The position numbers were made by a program, and so were the translations under genes. Source: an uncultured Pseudomonadota bacterium (GTDB lineage: Bacteria > Pseudomonadota > Gammaproteobacteria > Methylococcales > Methylomonadaceae). Taken from it: a DNA stretch of 50,149 nt. Numbering within the stretch: position 1 is the stretch's first letter; every line of letters begins with the position of its first letter. The DNA lies in the NCBI GenBank assembly GCA_903875455.1, contig CAIQWF010000175.1, forward strand, positions 1 through 50,149. The letters are read 5' to 3'. This document shows, in pieces, positions 19,458-33,364 of this stretch. The notes under the pieces are model-generated. The model ran no database searches and was not told the origin of the DNA. It saw only the letters and a program-made list of their open reading frames with translations.

Positions 19458-20378
19458 ATGATTAAGCAGCGGACTTTAAAGAATACTATTCGGGCAACCG
19501 GCGTAGGACTGCACACAGGCGATAAAATTTATCTTACCTTACATCCTGCTCCAGCTAATACCGGAATCTGTTTTCGGAGAGTTGATTTGGCAGAGCCTGT
19601 ATCCATCCGAGCTATCTCGAACAATGTGGGAGAAACCAAGCTTTCTACTACGTTGGTACAGGGTGATGTAAGGATTTCAACTGTAGAACACTTATTATCG
19701 GCTTTTGCCGGTTTAGGAATTGATAATGCCGTTGTAGATGTCAGTGCTGCTGAAGTGCCAATTATGGATGGTAGTGCAGGGCCTTTTGTGTTTTTGCTGC
19801 AATCGGCGGGGATTGTGGAACAGGACTCCCCAAAACAATATATTCGGATAAAAAAGCCAATCCATGTTGATGAAGGTGATAAATGGGCGGCATTTGAACC
19901 TTTTGAAGGTTTTAAAGTTACCTTTACCATCGATTTTGAACATCCCGCTTTTGCCGATCATTTGAAAACCGCCACGATGGATTTTTCTTCAACCACGTTC
20001 GTCAAGGAAGTTAGTCGCGCCAGAACTTTTGGCTTTATGAAAGACATTGAGTTTTTAAGGGAAAACAATTTGGCTCTAGGTGGCAGCCTTGAGAATGCTA
20101 TTGTGGTTGACGATGATAAAGTGCTTAATGAAGAGGGGCTGCGTTATGCGGACGAGTTTGTAAAGCACAAAATTCTGGATGCCATCGGTGATTTATATCT
20201 GTTGGGACATAGCCTGATTGGCGAATTTACCGGATATAAATCCGGGCATTCTTTGAATAATAAATTATTACGCGCTTTACTCGATGATACAGCGGCATGG
20301 GAACTGGTTTCATTTGAAGATGGAGACAATGCTCCTATTTCCTTTATGCGTTCGGCACAAAATCAAGCTGCTGGATAG
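19458..20378 (+). CDS. lpxC: LpxC, UDP-3-O-acyl-GlcNAc deacetylase (dcw copy)
   Basis: A zinc-dependent deacetylase of 306 residues catalysing the committed step of lipid A synthesis. The start [11 protein letters not shown], the zinc ligand in STVEHLLSA and the [19 protein letters not shown] segment, with the other zinc ligands (HxxxD), are all intact. This copy is in the ancestral position after ftsZ. A second intact lpxC of the same length lies at 32444-33364 on the other strand, with about 30 amino-acid differences. I count 27 base differences in the first 105 bases, so the two are not a recent duplication. Confidence 0.96.
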
Positions 20379-22142: not shown

Positions 22143-22632
22143 TGCAATGCTCCTGCCAAACTTCCAAGATTGGACTCTTCAGCAACTGCGTCACAAATTC
22201 CGTTGCTTGACTTAAACTTTGCTCGGCTATTACACTCAAACCTGCGCCCAATTCAAACTCCACGCCTTGTAGCGTTAATAAAAAACACGGCGGCGGCACA
22301 GCTTTCAATGTATCTTGATAAACCTGCATTACAGCCGCAGGATTCATCGCGTGCGTGGTGTAACTATTATCATAAGCAGGATTTAATTGGCTAAACTCAA
22401 CCGGCTGCTGATTGGCAACCGAAGCATCAGCAAATAAAACCAGTTCACGGTTTTGCAAATCCAGCGCATGTTCAATCTGTAACTGAAAATCGGTTAAACA
22501 TTCAATTTTTTCCAATAAAGTTTCAGGTAAATTCTGCACCTGTTCCAACAATAATGGTGCAAGTGCATCATCGCCGCGACTTAAATTGCCGTAAACGAGA
22601 ATTAAAATGGGTTTAACCTGCATTTGCTTCAT
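22135..22632 (-). CDS. Hydrogenase maturation protease (HoxW/HycI-like)
   Basis: About 165 residues with the fold signature of the hydrogenase-specific endopeptidases: VYGNLSRGDDALAPLLLE at the N-terminus, LFADAS near the middle and THAMNPAAVMQVY with the likely nickel-sensing histidine. These enzymes cut the C-terminal extension from the large subunit once nickel is in place. The position just after hoxH, with one gene between, suggests HoxH as substrate and a HoxW role. The start is the ATG at 22632 or one nine bases later at 22623; both lie within the preceding Uma2 gene, so translation is probably coupled. Confidence 0.85.
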   Translation of the reverse strand: MKQMQVKPILILVYGNLSRGDDALAPLLLEQVQNLPETLLEKIECLTDFQLQIEHALDLQNRELVLFADASVANQQPVEFSQLNPAYDNSYTTHAMNPAAVMQVYQDTLKAVPPPCFLLTLQGVEFELGAGLSVIAEQSLSQATEFVTQLLKSPILEVWQEHCSA

Positions 22633-23224
22633 CAATCACCAGTTGCTGCTGTGCTAAAAACTCAGTCATTTCTTCATTGACTACGCGGCTATAAATCATC
22701 TCAACCGGAACAGATAAATCAATAGACTCAAAACGAACCTCATCGCCTAAAAAATAATGTTCTGACTGCCAGCTTTGCGATTTTCGGCAAACTTCCACTT
22801 CGACAAAATCCTGCTCAATCAAGACATATTCCTGCAAACTCGGTAAACTTTGATAAGCGCGTCTTTTTAAGGCTTGATCTTTGCGGCGCGTGGATTTAGA
22901 TAAAACCTCAACAATAATTATCGGTGAGTCTGTGTAATATTCATTGTCGGATTTATCATTGCAAACCACCATTACATCAGGATAATAAAAATCTTCGCCC
23001 ACTTTGACTTTTATATCAGAAGCAAATGGTTCACAAGGGCTATTTTCTAAATGGGAATAAAGCCGAGCAAATAAATTACCAGTCACTCTTTCGTGATTTT
23101 TACTTGCTCCAGCCATCGCATAAGCATAACCATCAATCAGTTCATGCTTAATATCACTGATAAGCTCACCTTCCAAATATTCCTGTTCGCTAAGCCTATC
23201 ATCAGGTTTATATTTTAAATTCAT
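22613..23224 (-). CDS. Uma2-family nuclease-like protein between hoxH and the protease
   Basis: A 203-residue Uma2/DUF820 protein. The acidic core is visible as YYPDVMVVC (D83) and IIIVEVLSKST (E106), with RKDQALKRRAYQS after it. The N-terminus LSEQEYLEGELISDIKHELIDGYAYAMAGAS is typical of one subgroup and quite different from the dcw copy. Its ATG overlaps the hoxH stop by four bases and its 3' end overlaps the protease gene by about 20 bases, so it is fully built into the hydrogenase operon. Function is unknown. Confidence 0.85.
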   Translation of the reverse strand: MNLKYKPDDRLSEQEYLEGELISDIKHELIDGYAYAMAGASKNHERVTGNLFARLYSHLENSPCEPFASDIKVKVGEDFYYPDVMVVCNDKSDNEYYTDSPIIIVEVLSKSTRRKDQALKRRAYQSLPSLQEYVLIEQDFVEVEVCRKSQSWQSEHYFLGDEVRFESIDLSVPVEMIYSRVVNEEMTEFLAQQQLVIDEANAG

Positions 23225-24720
23225 AGCGTTTTTTCAATGTCGCCCTGACTGGTGGATTTAAATACCTGATTAATCACTTGCCCTTGCGCATTCACCAATT
23301 CCACTTCCATCGGCATTTTTCCCAACGCATGAGTAGCACAGGACAAGCACGGATCGTAAGCACGAATCGCCACTTCCAAGTGATTCAACAATGGTTCGGT
23401 AATTTCCAGACCATCCAAGTAAGTTGCCGCAACTTGCCGCACTGATTCGTTCATCGCATGGTTGTTACTGGTGGTGGAAACAATCAGATTAGCTTTGGTG
23501 ACAATGCCGTTATCATCTACCTGGTAATGATGGAACAGCGTGCCGCGCGGCGCTTCAATGACACCGACACCTTCATAGCGTTTTACCCCGGTTGCCACCA
23601 AATCAGTACCCATAATATCGGGGTCATGCAATAAGTCTTTAATGGCTTCCGCACAATGCAGAATTTCAATCAGTCGCGCCCAATGATAAGCCAAGGTGCT
23701 GTGTACCATTTTTTCATCAGTGATAGCCATTAATTGTTGCCGCGCAACTTCCGCTTTTGGCGTACTGATGTAATCGCATACGTTAATTCGGGCAAGAGGG
23801 CCTACGCGATACCAGCCGTCCTGTTGCCCTAATGACAGGAAATACGGGAATTTCATGTATGACCACGAGCGCACTTCCTCGTGGATATAATCGTTGTATT
23901 TGCAATAGTCAATGTGGTCAAACAGCGTATTACCTTCAGCGTTTTTCAAACGCAAGCCGCCGTGATAAAGCTCCAAGCTGCCGTCTTTGCCGACCAAGCC
24001 CATATAACTGGATTTTATGGTGGCAAATTCATCGTGATACGGTTTGTTGGAACAATGCACTTTGGCAATTAATGCTACTGAATCTTCTGCCCATGCAATC
24101 ATCTGGTCAACATCAGCGAGTAAATAATCGCGCTCTTCTTTGGTCAACGATTTATTTACTCCGCCTCCGATTGAGCTGGAGCCATGAATCCGTTTGCCGG
24201 ACACCATGCGGATCACTTCCTGACCGAATTTGCGCAGTTTTACGCCTTGCAAGCCAATTTCGGTGAACTCGCCCAACACTGCAATAATATTCCGTTTGGC
24301 AATGTCACTGCTAAAACCGAACAGTAAATCCGGGCTGGCAAGGTGGAAAAAATGCAGTGCGTGCGATTGCAAGACTTGCCCGAAATGTTGCAAACGGCGC
24401 ATTTTATCTGCGGTCGGCGGTAAGTTTTCCGGGTCTATGCCAACCAGCTGGTCTATGGCTTTTGCCGCCGCCAAGTGATGACTGACCGGACAAATTCCAC
24501 ATAAACGCTGCACTAAAACCGGCAATTCCCAATACGGACGGCCTTGAATAAAGCGTTCAAAGCCGCGAAATTCGACGATATGCAAGCGGGCTTGTTTAAC
24601 GTGGTTATTGTCATCCAATAATAAAGTGACTTTGCCATGACCTTCAACGCGGCTTACGGGTTCTATCACCACACGTTTTAAATTCTCTGGTGATTGAGCA
24701 GTTTCTAAATGTTCGTACAT
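23221..24720 (-). CDS. hoxH: HoxH, large subunit of NAD-linked [NiFe] hydrogenase
   Basis: The catalytic nickel-iron subunit, 499 residues. The first pair of active-site cysteines is in RLCGICPVSHH (C74, C77) and the second in DPCLSCATH (C458, C461, H464). A 35-residue tail follows H464 and should be removed by the maturation protease. The EPVSRVEGHGKV start region and overall length match group 3d HoxH. The ATG at 24720 (MYEHLE) is preferred to one 18 bases upstream. A 7-bp stem-loop lies 41-58 bases in front. The usual hoxY-hoxH adjacency is broken by three accessory genes. Confidence 0.96.
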   Translation of the reverse strand: MYEHLETAQSPENLKRVVIEPVSRVEGHGKVTLLLDDNNHVKQARLHIVEFRGFERFIQGRPYWELPVLVQRLCGICPVSHHLAAAKAIDQLVGIDPENLPPTADKMRRLQHFGQVLQSHALHFFHLASPDLLFGFSSDIAKRNIIAVLGEFTEIGLQGVKLRKFGQEVIRMVSGKRIHGSSSIGGGVNKSLTKEERDYLLADVDQMIAWAEDSVALIAKVHCSNKPYHDEFATIKSSYMGLVGKDGSLELYHGGLRLKNAEGNTLFDHIDYCKYNDYIHEEVRSWSYMKFPYFLSLGQQDGWYRVGPLARINVCDYISTPKAEVARQQLMAITDEKMVHSTLAYHWARLIEILHCAEAIKDLLHDPDIMGTDLVATGVKRYEGVGVIEAPRGTLFHHYQVDDNGIVTKANLIVSTTSNNHAMNESVRQVAATYLDGLEITEPLLNHLEVAIRAYDPCLSCATHALGKMPMEVELVNAQGQVINQVFKSTSQGDIEKTL

Positions 24721-24760
24721 GATTTTTTTACCTATCAATTAGGTTATATTCTGTATGGGA

Positions 24761-24778
24761 TACAAACCCAAGTTTGTA
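24761..24778. promoter_or_regulatory. Stem-loop in front of hoxH
   Basis: TACAAAC (24761-24767) and GTTTGTA (24772-24778) form a perfect 7-bp stem with a 4-base loop in the gap between a Uma2 gene and hoxH. No T-run follows on the minus strand. It may be part of the original hoxY-hoxH spacer. Confidence 0.35.
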
Positions 24779-24790
24779 CTCCTAAATTTT

Positions 24791-24820
24791 TTAGTCGTAA
24801 TGCCCTAAATTGTAATTGAA
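24791..24820 (-). pseudogene. Apparent relic of the hoxY 3' end
   Basis: Read on the minus strand, these ten codons give FNYNLGHYD-stop, resembling the true HoxY C-terminus LDYDLVHYD-stop at 25826-25855. By eye 22 of 30 bases agree. Five differences fall at third positions (four silent, one Leu/Phe), one is TGA against TAA, and three of the rest exchange similar residues (two D/N) or V/G. It lies exactly where the end of hoxY would be if hoxY and hoxH had once been neighbours. Its shortness is the main caution. Confidence 0.45.
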
Positions 24821-24825
24821 ATAGA

Positions 24826-25302
24826 CTACACATCAATTTTCAAAGGAAAATCCGCTACATATTCCGAATGAATCAGCTCATGATCGGCATTAAAAAAACG
24901 CATTTCGCCATTTTCACTGCACAACCACACTTCTTTTGCGCCTGCCTCAAAATATAAAATACTTTTTTCAGCCATTTCTTTCTGTGTATTGCTTTCCGAT
25001 AAAATCTCAACGCAAATCTCAGGCGCAATTGAAGCTTCCGCCTCATGCTTGATTTGCTCCCATCTTGGCAAAGAAAGCCATGCCACATCCGCAACTTTAG
25101 TACCTTTAACCGTTTTTATCGCACATTCGGACAAGGCAACCCCGCCTTGCAGCAAACGTTCCAAAATAACCGCAATCCTGATTTGAAAAAAGGAGTGATA
25201 AATTTTTACCGGACACATAATAATTTTTCCTGTTTCATCCAGTTCAATCTTAAACGGCAAATCTTTTAAACTCGGATGTTCACAAACCTCTTGCCAATTC
25301 AT
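24826..25302 (-). CDS. Uma2-family nuclease-like protein upstream of hoxH
   Basis: A 158-residue, shorter member of the Uma2/DUF820 family, with VADVAWLS (D72) and ICVEILSESNTQKEM (E99) followed by KSILYFEAGAKEVWLC. The N-terminal part is reduced compared with the other two copies in the window, but the core looks whole. It has a strong AGGAGG ribosome site and follows the toxin gene by 17 bases. It is most likely part of the same inserted cassette as the toxin-antitoxin pair. Whether it is active as a nuclease cannot be told. Confidence 0.8.
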   Translation of the reverse strand: MNWQEVCEHPSLKDLPFKIELDETGKIIMCPVKIYHSFFQIRIAVILERLLQGGVALSECAIKTVKGTKVADVAWLSLPRWEQIKHEAEASIAPEICVEILSESNTQKEMAEKSILYFEAGAKEVWLCSENGEMRFFNADHELIHSEYVADFPLKIDV

Positions 25303-25319
25303 GTTAGCCTCCTAATAAT

Positions 25320-25598
25320 CTATAAAGACTTTTTTAAATCACGATAAAAATTCTCATGCGTGCCATAAGCCAACAACATCAAAACTAACACTTCCTTCTG
25401 ATACCGATAAGCTAATAACATTTGTTGGGTATTCACCTTAAACTTATAAACCCTAACGCCGTTCAAATCGCCCGTTTTTAAATCGCCTAATTCTGGCTCA
25501 ACTAGCAAGGCTTTGACCGCATCATCCAACAACTCCTTTTCTGGTTTATGCAGTTTTTTGACAGTTTTGGCAAACAAACTACTTTGTAAAACTTTCAT
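25320..25598 (-). CDS. RelE/ParE-type toxin
   Basis: A 92-residue protein with the compact RelE/ParE superfamily pattern: an N-terminal strand and two helices (SSLFAKTVKKLHKPEKELLDDAV), then GDLNGVRVYKFKVNTQQMLLAYRY and a final strand VLVLMLLAYGTHENFYRDLKK. The GTHENFYRDL ending is seen in many RelE-like toxins, which cut mRNA on the ribosome or poison gyrase. It overlaps the stop of the small gene in front by four bases (ATGA), the usual antitoxin-toxin arrangement. Confidence 0.8.
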   Translation of the reverse strand: MKVLQSSLFAKTVKKLHKPEKELLDDAVKALLVEPELGDLKTGDLNGVRVYKFKVNTQQMLLAYRYQKEVLVLMLLAYGTHENFYRDLKKSL

Positions 25599-25810
25599 CC
25601 AAACTCGTACTCAGATATATCGCCCGCTTCAACTTGTTGCAAACTGACTAAAATATCTTTTACAAAAGCCATTGGTAAATCAGGATTTTCCTCGGCAATC
25701 TTGCCTAATTTTGCCCAATATTCAATCTGTGTAGCCAATGAACGGTGCATGGTATTTGCCATAACCGCAGCTTCGTTCACAAAATCATTCGATAACTCAA
25801 TGACAGCCAT
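25595..25810 (-). CDS. ParD-like antitoxin
   Basis: A 71-residue protein with the look of the ParD-like antitoxin family: IELSNDFVNEAAVMANTMHRSLATQIEYWAKLGKIAEENPDLPMAFVKDIL. The MHRSLATQIEYWAKLG helix resembles the ribbon-helix-helix region, and the acidic tail (VEAGDISEYEFG) would bind the toxin. An AGAGGAAT ribosome site precedes the ATG, 15 bases after hoxY. Such antitoxins often repress their own operon, but here the pair lies inside a larger operon. Confidence 0.75.
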   Translation of the reverse strand: MAVIELSNDFVNEAAVMANTMHRSLATQIEYWAKLGKIAEENPDLPMAFVKDILVSLQQVEAGDISEYEFG

Positions 25811-25825
25811 TTTGATTCCTCTTTC

Positions 25826-26362
25826 TCAATCATAATGCACTAAATCATAATCCAATCCAGGCTCACGTCCGGCGATTAAATCCGTCAAAAACTTCCAAAA
25901 CACATCGGCAGATGGCGGACAACCTGGCAAGGAATAATCAATTTTCACCACTTCATGAATCGGATGAACTTTATTCAGCAATAACGGCAGTTCAGGGTCA
26001 TTCGGAATATGGGCATTCTCTACGCCAATGCCATCCAAATAAGCCTCACGCAAACACGCTTCCAATGGTACGGAGTTTCGCATCGCCGGCAAGCCGCCGT
26101 TAATCGCACAGGCACCGACCGCAACCAAAATTTTGCAGTTATTCCGAAACTCTCGCAACACATGCACGTTTTCGGCATTGCAAACCCCGCCTTCAATCAA
26201 ACCTATATCACATGGCCCGCAATGTTTAATATCGGTAATCGGTGAGCGGTTAAATTCAACCACATCCGCTAACGGCACTAACCGCTCATCCAAATCCAAA
26301 AATGACATGTGGCAGCCAAAACAGCCCGCTAGTGAAGTTGTTGCAACTCGTACTTTACTCAT
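25826..26362 (-). CDS. hoxY: HoxY, small subunit of NAD-linked hydrogenase
   Basis: A 178-residue iron-sulfur subunit that carries the proximal [4Fe-4S] cluster and forms the hydrogenase dimer with HoxH. Cluster ligands are visible in SLAGCFGCHMSFLDLDE (C14, C17), in VGACAINGGLPAMRN (C85) and in PGCPPSADVFWKFL near the end. It overlaps hoxU by 8 bases. It lacks the extra clusters of longer small subunits, as expected for group 3d enzymes. Confidence 0.95.
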   Translation of the reverse strand: MSKVRVATTSLAGCFGCHMSFLDLDERLVPLADVVEFNRSPITDIKHCGPCDIGLIEGGVCNAENVHVLREFRNNCKILVAVGACAINGGLPAMRNSVPLEACLREAYLDGIGVENAHIPNDPELPLLLNKVHPIHEVVKIDYSLPGCPPSADVFWKFLTDLIAGREPGLDYDLVHYD

Positions 26363-32443: not shown

Positions 32444-33364
32444 TTAACCGGCCGCCTGATTTTGCGCAGAGCGCATAAACGAAATTGGAGCGTTGTTTTC
32501 GTCGCTAAAGGAGATAATTTCCCATGCGTCTTTGTTTTCCAATAATGCCCGCAACAACTTGTTATTCAAGGAATGGCCTGATTTATAGCCGTGAAATTCA
32601 CCAATCAGGCTATGCCCTAACAAATATAAATCGCCAATCGCATCCAGGATTTTGTGTTTGACAAATTCATCCGCATAACGCAGTCCGTCTTCATTCAGTA
32701 CTTTGTCGTCATCAACCACAATGGCATTATCAAGACTGCCGCCCAAAGCCAGATTATTTTCCCGTAAAAACTCAATGTCTTTCATAAAACCAAAGGTTCG
32801 GGCCCGGCTGACTTCTTTCACAAAAGTAGTGGAAGAAAAGTCCATCGTTGCCGTTTTCAGATGGTCGGCAAAGGCGGGATGTTCAAAATCAATGGTGAAA
32901 GTGACTTTGAAACCATCAAACGGTTCAAACGAGGCCCATTTATCATCTTCATCAACCCGGATAGGTTTTTTAATCCGAATGTATTTTTTCGGGCTATCCT
33001 GTTCAACAATCCCCGCAGACTGAATCAAAAATACGAAAGGCCCTGCACTGCCGTCCATAATCGGCACTTCAGCAGAACTGACATCAACAATGGCGTTATC
33101 AATCCCTAAACCTGCCAATGCTGACAGCAAATGCTCAACGGTGGAGATTTTCACATCGCCTTGTACCAATGTTGTTGACAGCTTGGTTTCACCGACATTA
33201 TCGGAAGTAGCGCGGATAATTACAGGTTCCGGCAAATCCACCCGGCGAAAGCAAATTCCAGTATCTACAGCGGCGGGGTGCAAGGTCAAATAGACTTTAT
33301 CACCCGTGTGCAAGCCCACGCCGGTGGCGCGAATGGTATTTTTCAAGGTACGCTGTTTAATCAT
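32444..33364 (-). CDS. lpxC: Second LpxC, UDP-3-O-acyl-GlcNAc deacetylase
   Basis: An intact 306-residue LpxC, same length as the dcw copy and differing at about 30 residues (about 90% identical), with all zinc-site motifs ([18 protein letters not shown]) conserved. The changes cluster in the region after the start ([14 protein letters not shown]) and near the end ([17 protein letters not shown]). Base identity over the first 35 codons is only 78 of 105, nearly all differences silent. The second copy uses more C/G-ending codons there. This points to an old duplication or acquisition from a relative, with function kept. Confidence 0.95.

What the first reader, a model, noticed from the sequence alone, without database searches (positions are those of the whole stretch)
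24791..25855. Relic of the hoxY 3' end marks where a three-gene cassette entered the hydrogenase operon
Directly after the Uma2 gene, ten codons read FNYNLGHYD-stop, against the real HoxY end LDYDLVHYD-stop at 25826-25855. By eye 22 of 30 bases match, in the right frame, with the stop aligned. Most differences are synonymous or conservative, as between alleles, not as in decay. The antitoxin-toxin-Uma2 cassette (about 1 kb) lies between the two ends. I infer that the cassette came in with a foreign hoxY allele, or split an old hoxY-hoxH junction, leaving the resident tail behind.
Basis: partly seen in the sequence, partly recalled or inferred. Interest (0 to 1): 0.6.

Follow-up and report, generated by a model that had tools for sequence, protein, structure and literature searches.

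The report
Displaced hoxY tail beside inserted cassette
A ten-codon copy of the end of one hydrogenase gene, stranded behind three inserted genes, looks like a true scar showing where those genes were slotted into the operon of a methane-oxidising bacterium, at a junction where its relatives repeatedly collect such inserts.

Summary
The relic (24791-24820, minus strand) matches the HoxY end at 22 of 30 bases with the stop aligned. Shuffles of the spacer match it this well in 8 of 20,000 (bases) and 0 of 20,000 (residues). Its closest known tail belongs to its own hoxY clade. It ends 70 bases before hoxH, a normal hoxY-hoxH spacing.

In this family the hoxY-hoxH junction is a recurrent landing site, often for toxin-antitoxin genes, while the hoxU-hoxY gap stays at -8 to +5 bases in 78 of 78 loci. 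Independent displaced gene ends occur in a congener (12 bases of hoxY tail before the same ParD-ParE pair), in G028 (about 20 codons) and, mirrored, in a MAG with a decayed hoxH start 122 bases behind hoxY.

"Split an old hoxY-hoxH junction, leaving the tail behind" is supported. "Foreign hoxY allele" is not: hoxY nests with its congeners, and the relic looks decayed rather than allelic. Most likely mechanism, inferred: recombination anchored in hoxY, closed by an illegitimate join. That is known in kind; searches listed nothing on this site.

The parts
25826..26362 (-). hoxY, small subunit of the NiFe hydrogenase, with its true 3' end LDYDLVHYD* at 25826-25855
   Evidence: native by the tree
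25595..25810 (-). ParD-like antitoxin, first gene of the cassette
   Evidence: PF11903; 93% nt to G001 C71
25320..25598 (-). ParE-like toxin, overlaps ParD
   Evidence: PF15781; 93% nt to G001 C71
24826..25302 (-). Uma2-family gene, last gene of the cassette
   Evidence: PF05685; homolog in G001 C64 (72% over 507 bases) and a 73-base 5' fragment in G001 C71 (86%)
24791..24820 (-). displaced hoxY tail (relic), FNYNLGHYD*
   Evidence: clade affinity
24754..24788 (-). REP-like palindromic repeat (core TACAAACTTGGGTTTGTA at 24761-24778) between the relic and hoxH
   Evidence: 45 of 237 family genomes (the window's own included) match the 130-base query, nearly all listed matches falling on this repeat; only 3 candidates per genome were scored; palindrome and hairpin
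23221..24720 (-). hoxH, large subunit of the NiFe hydrogenase, start MYEHLETA
   Evidence: PF00374

Best explanation
24791-24820 is the old 3' end of hoxY, displaced downstream when an antitoxin-toxin-Uma2 segment was inserted exactly behind hoxY. Shown: the relic, the recurrent insertion at this junction, and independent displaced gene ends at the same junction in other genomes. Inferred mechanism: incoming DNA from a related cell carried hoxY (or its 3' part) followed by the cassette. RecA-type homologous pairing in hoxY anchored it, and the other end was closed by a non-homologous join inside the last codons of the resident hoxY. That gives an intact hoxY, then the new cassette, then the stranded tail, then the old spacer and hoxH. 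When the anchor is on the hoxH side, the mirror scar results (a displaced hoxH start behind hoxY), as seen in L077. The relic is now unselected and decaying.
For: Relic beyond chance. Closest tail is of its own clade: 25/30 to L036/L037; five clade tails 22, 23, 22, 25, 19 against a median of 19 (maximum 23) for 108 others, Mann-Whitney p = 0.0026. Normal distance to hoxH: 70 bases; 35 of 98 loci have 70 or fewer.

Independent scars: (a) congener G001, contig C71: the window's hoxY-ParD junction aligns with a 12-base hoxY tail CATTATGATTAA (HYD*) placed before ParD, behind Fic and a truncated Uma2, while the true hoxY end lies upstream. (b) G028: about 20 codons of hoxY tail, 59/60 bases, joined to an ORF start that matches the first 21 of 54 positions of antitoxin family PF09720 (22.4 bits, just under the 23.3 cut-off). 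(c) L077: VYKNFETAENL** against hoxH start MYENLETAENQ, 122 bases behind hoxY; score 18.5 against a null best of 11.5 in 65 spacers. (d) G001 C64: 48 bases (92%) around the start of the last reading frame before hoxH, duplicated ahead of an inserted pair.

Relic lengths differ (about 4, 10 and 20 codons), as an illegitimate join predicts. Modules adjoining hoxY in one genome lie deeper in another. ParDE and BrnTA are more alike between species at fourfold sites (38/51, 38/47) than hox genes (248/525, 141/320). ComEC and DprA families are present, but each also rings in 10 or more of 14 control genomes, so this is weak.
Against: The relic is only 30 bases. The base-only survey score barely exceeds the null strand (11.0 against 10.5). 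Most occupied spacers show no scar: of 141 loci (window counted twice) only the window and G028 stand out for a hoxY tail, and only L077 for a hoxH start. Non-clade tails reach 23/30 to the relic. G028's copy carries the following repeat and leader with it, which fits local duplication at least as well. The G001 cases lie on separate contigs, and reading them as two alternatives rests on an assembly bubble. No cassette-free strain of this species and no donor were found. The 70-base leader shares no visible similarity with L039's 42-base spacer and holds a repeat. Microhomology at the window's own junction cannot be shown.
Confidence: 0.68

Rival explanations
1. Tandem duplication within the genome (hoxY tail plus what follows), later trimmed by deletion, made the second tail without incoming DNA.
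For: G028's copy is 59/60 identical and carries the following repeat and leader with it, as a local duplication would.
Against: In the window and in G001 C71 the relic is not followed by a second copy of what follows hoxY, so extra deletions are needed. ParDE looks transferred between species.
Confidence: 0.15
2. Chance resemblance in an AT-rich gap.
For: 30 bases only; the base-only suffix score on the null strand reaches 10.5 against 11.0 over 141 loci.
Against: 8 and 0 of 20,000 shuffles; none of 69,488 real 30-mers outside hoxY tails; right strand, frame, stop and distance; affinity to its own clade; equivalent scars elsewhere.
Confidence: 0.12
3. Site-specific mobile element or integron using the hoxY 3' end as attachment site and rebuilding it on entry.
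For: Polar, gene-sized modules directly behind hoxY; the two G001 alternatives diverge at the base after the hoxY stop. One inserted ORF in L042 matches an integron cassette protein family, Hfx_Cass5, at 25.8 bits against a cut-off of 25.
Against: No recombinase among the families shown for the inserted genes scanned (one search shows 25 of 30 families). No integron integrase above cut-off in 3 of 3 genus genomes, though 2 of 3 have weak hits below it. Scar lengths differ (about 4, 10 and 20 codons), so there is no fixed core. The mirror scar is in hoxH.
Confidence: 0.04
4. The 30 bases belong to the Uma2 module's trailer or to the dispersed repeat next to it.
For: They touch both; the window-C64 Uma2 alignment runs a few bases into the relic.
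Against: The C64 sequence behind Uma2 agrees clearly only for TCTA. The listed repeat matches begin at the relic's end or later, apart from overlaps of up to ten bases and one weak hit across it (G078, E 0.009).
Confidence: 0.04

Closest known systems
Homology-facilitated illegitimate recombination (HFIR), described in Streptococcus pneumoniae, Acinetobacter baylyi and Pseudomonas stutzeri (PMC3240628, passages seen)
   Same: One homologous anchor and one non-homologous join insert about 1 kb of foreign DNA next to a conserved stretch; fits the window's intact hoxY, cassette and partial second end.
   Different: Laboratory HFIR usually deletes recipient DNA and mostly shows 3-10 base microhomology (PMC3240628). 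Here no deletion can be shown, microhomology is at best hinted at in G001 C71, and RecA dependence is untested.
Sequential displacement of type VI effector-immunity modules in Vibrio cholerae (PMC5361080, passages seen)
   Same: New modules enter directly behind a conserved stretch, older ones are shifted downstream, a displaced 3' end is described, and the authors propose a mechanism akin to HFIR with the upstream region as anchor.
   Different: There the displaced parts are immunity genes and effector ends that may be useful; here they are ends of core enzyme genes of no evident use, and the modules include toxin-antitoxin and Uma2 genes inside a hydrogenase operon.
Cyanobacterial hox operons with interspersed genes (Lyngbya majuscula, PMC2674450, passages seen)
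   Same: Unrelated genes lie among the hox genes, and a Uma2-family ORF lies nearby.
   Different: No displaced gene ends appear in the passages seen; a different phylum and gene set.

Membership tests
Product of homology-facilitated illegitimate recombination | a homologous anchor at one side of the insert | tested here: inconclusive
   Intact native hoxY on one side fits, but no donor or crossover point is seen
Product of homology-facilitated illegitimate recombination | join at the other side at varying positions, with broken partner genes | tested here: met
   Scars of about 4, 10 and 20 codons in three loci; a truncated Uma2 and a truncated antitoxin at two of the joins. That the joins are non-homologous is inferred, since no donor is known
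Product of homology-facilitated illegitimate recombination | short microhomology at the join | tested here: inconclusive
   ATTATG shared by Uma2 and the hoxY tail in the C71 alignment; not testable in the window without the donor
Product of homology-facilitated illegitimate recombination | RecA dependence, linear incoming DNA | not testable with these tools
   ComEC and DprA families are present, which is only compatible
Integron cassette array | integron integrase (IntI) | tested here: not met
   TIGR02249 above cut-off in 0 of 3 genus genomes
Integron cassette array | attC sites between cassettes | not tested
   No dedicated attC search was run
ParDE-like type II toxin-antitoxin pair | ParD-like antitoxin overlapping a ParE-like toxin | tested here: met
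   PF11903 and PF15781 above cut-off, overlapping ORFs; activity untested
HoxFUYH NiFe hydrogenase operon | contiguous hoxF-hoxU-hoxY with hoxH on the same strand | tested here: met
   domains of HoxY and HoxH, of HoxF and HoxU (complex I-like iron-sulphur and FMN domains); the names hoxF and hoxU rest on gene order and recalled domain make-up

The most novel reading that the evidence does not exclude
The hoxY-hoxH junction of Methylococcales is an integrase-free, homology-driven cassette site. Small toxin-antitoxin and Uma2-type modules enter next to the conserved hoxY (or hoxH), push older ones inward, shuttle between species faster than the hox genes, and leave short displaced ends of the core genes that record the side and order of entry.
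Probability: 0.35. Interest if true: 0.6.

Novelty: new variant of a known kind. Interest (0 to 1): 0.45.

Why it matters
How small toxin-antitoxin modules, which carry no recombinase, settle in core operons is rarely visible. Displaced core-gene ends show the side, order and type of join of each insertion in natural populations. They would turn a laboratory mechanism (HFIR) into something that can be counted in genomes, and they warn that the hox genes of methanotrophs should not be taken for one unbroken unit.

Tried and rejected
Foreign hoxY: not supported by the tree or by identity along hoxF/U/Y/H. Relic as part of Uma2's trailer or of the repeat: disfavoured. A relic in every occupied spacer: not so. 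The tail segment of hoxY is not generally enriched in 80 spacers, and the survey of 141 loci (window counted twice) adds no further clear hoxY tail. An apparent second tail in G078 is only an overlap of two contigs. L065's apparent hoxH start in the spacer is its real, frameshifted hoxH; the same locus gives one artefactual gap (-74) and is wrongly one of the 22 loci without hoxH. G064's extra hits are mid-hoxY pieces. Integron: no integrase over cut-off. One search used wrong relic coordinates and its comparisons are void; one search replaces it. Other ParE-like relatives in the family are at most 68% identical apart from G001, so no donor was found.

Full report
The locus. The window is contig C175 of a Methylococcaceae genome (family inferred from its relatives). 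On the - strand hoxF, hoxU and hoxY overlap one another, then come a ParD-like antitoxin, a ParE-like toxin and a Uma2 gene, then hoxH. Another Uma2 gene overlaps the end of hoxH.

The observation. The relic at 24791-24820 matches the HoxY end (25826-25855) at 22 of 30 bases with aligned stops. Of 20,000 dinucleotide shuffles of the 1,105-base spacer, 8 reach 22 and none reaches the residue score of 31. Among 69,488 stop-terminated 30-mers of the window and 80 loci only hoxY's own tails and the relic pass. In an earlier scan with a tail profile the relic scored 24.8, the tail copy in G028 43.5, and nothing else above 15.4 forward or 15.3 reverse. Against it: a base-only suffix score over 141 loci (the window counted twice) gives 11.0 for the relic and 10.5 for the best null-strand hit. 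The relic's four residue changes, one of them V to G, look like decay. LDYDLVHYD is identical in the window, G002, L036/L037 and G001.

Phylogenetic affinity. Among 113 distinct hoxY tails the nearest (25/30) is that of L036/L037, of the window's own hoxY clade. The clade's five distinct tails score 22, 23, 22, 25 and 19 against a median of 19 (maximum 23) for 108 others, Mann-Whitney p = 0.0026. The D-to-N changes start more easily from the clade's LDYDL than from the LPYEL common elsewhere. The hoxY tree (40 rows) places the window with G001 and G002, then L036/L037 and L039; the six rows are held together at 100/97.

The junction is a landing site. In 80 loci from public genomes the hoxU-hoxY gap is -8 to +5 bases in 78 of 78 measured, and hoxF-hoxU lies within 60 bases in 70 of 74. 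The hoxY-hoxH gap in 55 measured loci is 60 or less in 17 (one an artefact of a frameshifted hoxH), 61-200 in 13, 201-600 in 8 and over 600 in 17; 25 loci show no hoxH, 13 of them with at least 4.5 kb in hand. In the larger set of 141 loci (window twice), 98 have hoxH: 33, 25, 19 and 21 in the same classes; 22 more hold at least 3.5 kb without hoxH, one of them (L065) wrongly. In the 25 spacers over 200 bases's set there are 48 ORFs of at least 60 aa in 23 spacers, 46 of 48 on the operon's strand. Pfam finds ParE (5), YoeB (4), PF09720 antitoxins (3), PIN (2), HicA, HicB and UPF0175, and others such as sulphur transport, aminotransferases, ankyrin repeats and one integron cassette protein; 25 of 30 families were shown.

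The genus in detail. G001's hoxY contig C14 ends at the hoxY stop and overlaps both C71 and C64 by exactly 77 bases; both end in the same 77 bases that start C110, which leads into hoxH. I read this as an assembly bubble: two alternative cassette sets between hoxY and hoxH. C71 holds Fic, a truncated Uma2, ParD-ParE, a 270-aa SHOCT protein, BrnT with a CopG-type antitoxin (below its cut-off), and a 575-aa protein of no family. C64 holds the SHOCT protein, Uma2 (24.1 bits against a cut-off of 27), a cold-shock/Excalibur protein, DUF433 and DUF5615. G002 has BrnT, its antitoxin and the start of the long protein directly behind hoxY. So BrnT, the SHOCT gene, ParD and Fic each adjoin hoxY in one genome, and the first three lie deeper in C71. 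Order of entry is inferred from this.

Independent scars. In C71 the window's hoxY-ParD junction aligns with CATTATGATTAA, the last 12 bases of hoxY, placed before ParD; the true hoxY end lies upstream before Fic. In G028 about 20 hoxY codons (59/60 bases) follow a truncated antitoxin (first 21 of 54 positions of PF09720, just under cut-off), and the repeat and leader behind hoxY are copied too. In L077, 122 bases behind hoxY, VYKNFETAENL** copies the hoxH start MYENLETAENQ; a sulphur-transport pair lies between it and the real hoxH. Its score is 18.5 against a null best of 11.5 over 65 spacers; by residues 29 against a null best of 24. In C64, 48 bases (92%) around the start of the last reading frame before hoxH recur upstream of DUF433-DUF5615; that frame is itself broken, its later part matching DUF4351.

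Movement of modules. At fourfold sites ParD+ParE of the window and G001 agree at 38 of 51, hoxF/U/Y/H at 248 of 525 (Fisher p = 0.0002). BrnT plus antitoxin of G001 and G002 agree at 38 of 47, hoxY/U/H at 141 of 320 (no test run). The modules have thus moved between species after the hox genes diverged, or evolve under other constraints; I prefer the first.

Mechanism. No recombinase appears among the families shown for the inserted genes scanned, no integron integrase passes the cut-off in the genus, and scar lengths differ. A homologous anchor in hoxY (or hoxH) with an illegitimate join at the other end predicts a short displaced end of the anchor gene, on either side. HFIR is described in competent bacteria (PMC3240628, passages) and a mechanism akin to it was proposed for module displacement in V. 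cholerae (PMC5361080, passages). Local tandem duplication with later loss is the best rival, most plausible for G028. The repeat between the relic and hoxH is a separate insertion of unknown age.

Literature. Searches for hoxH + hoxY + toxin-antitoxin, for hoxH/hoxY/cyanobacteria/intergenic/xisH, for hoxYH in methanotrophs, for insertion hotspots with toxin-antitoxin genes, for HFIR with partial duplication, and for hoxFUYH + methanotroph + hydrogenase listed no paper whose title or abstract start describes this junction as an insertion site; of these lists only PMC2674450 was opened (passages).

Noticed in passing
19458-20378 (+) and 32444-33364 (-): Two lpxC genes (PF03331 for the first), 79% alike in bases and 277 of 307 in residues (stop included), lie in opposite orientation on either side of the hydrogenase locus.
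   Followed up: partly
22613-23224 (-): A second, longer Uma2 gene overlaps the end of hoxH; pieces of it match contig C107 of the same genome, which also holds a relative of the ParE-like toxin.
   Followed up: partly
L036, L037 (downstream of hoxY): hoxY is followed by an ORF of no Pfam family and an opposite-strand chemotaxis receptor gene; hoxH of these genomes lies on another contig, in L036's genome behind a TetR-family gene, so the operon may be split.
   Followed up: partly
L115 and L116 ends (G001 C71, C64): The two alternative cassette sets diverge at the base after the hoxY stop and rejoin at the ATG of the next reading frame, with overlapping stop and start codons in both; such precise borders are unexplained.
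   Followed up: partly
L137 (G078 C72): In G078 the second of two small genes behind hoxY runs into a REP-like repeat and seems broken by it. I read the pair as toxin-antitoxin from recalled resemblance; the first ORF has no Pfam match.
   Followed up: no
L055, L044, L109, L042: Gaps of 137-1168 bases between hoxF and hoxU, the only exceptions among 74.
   Followed up: no
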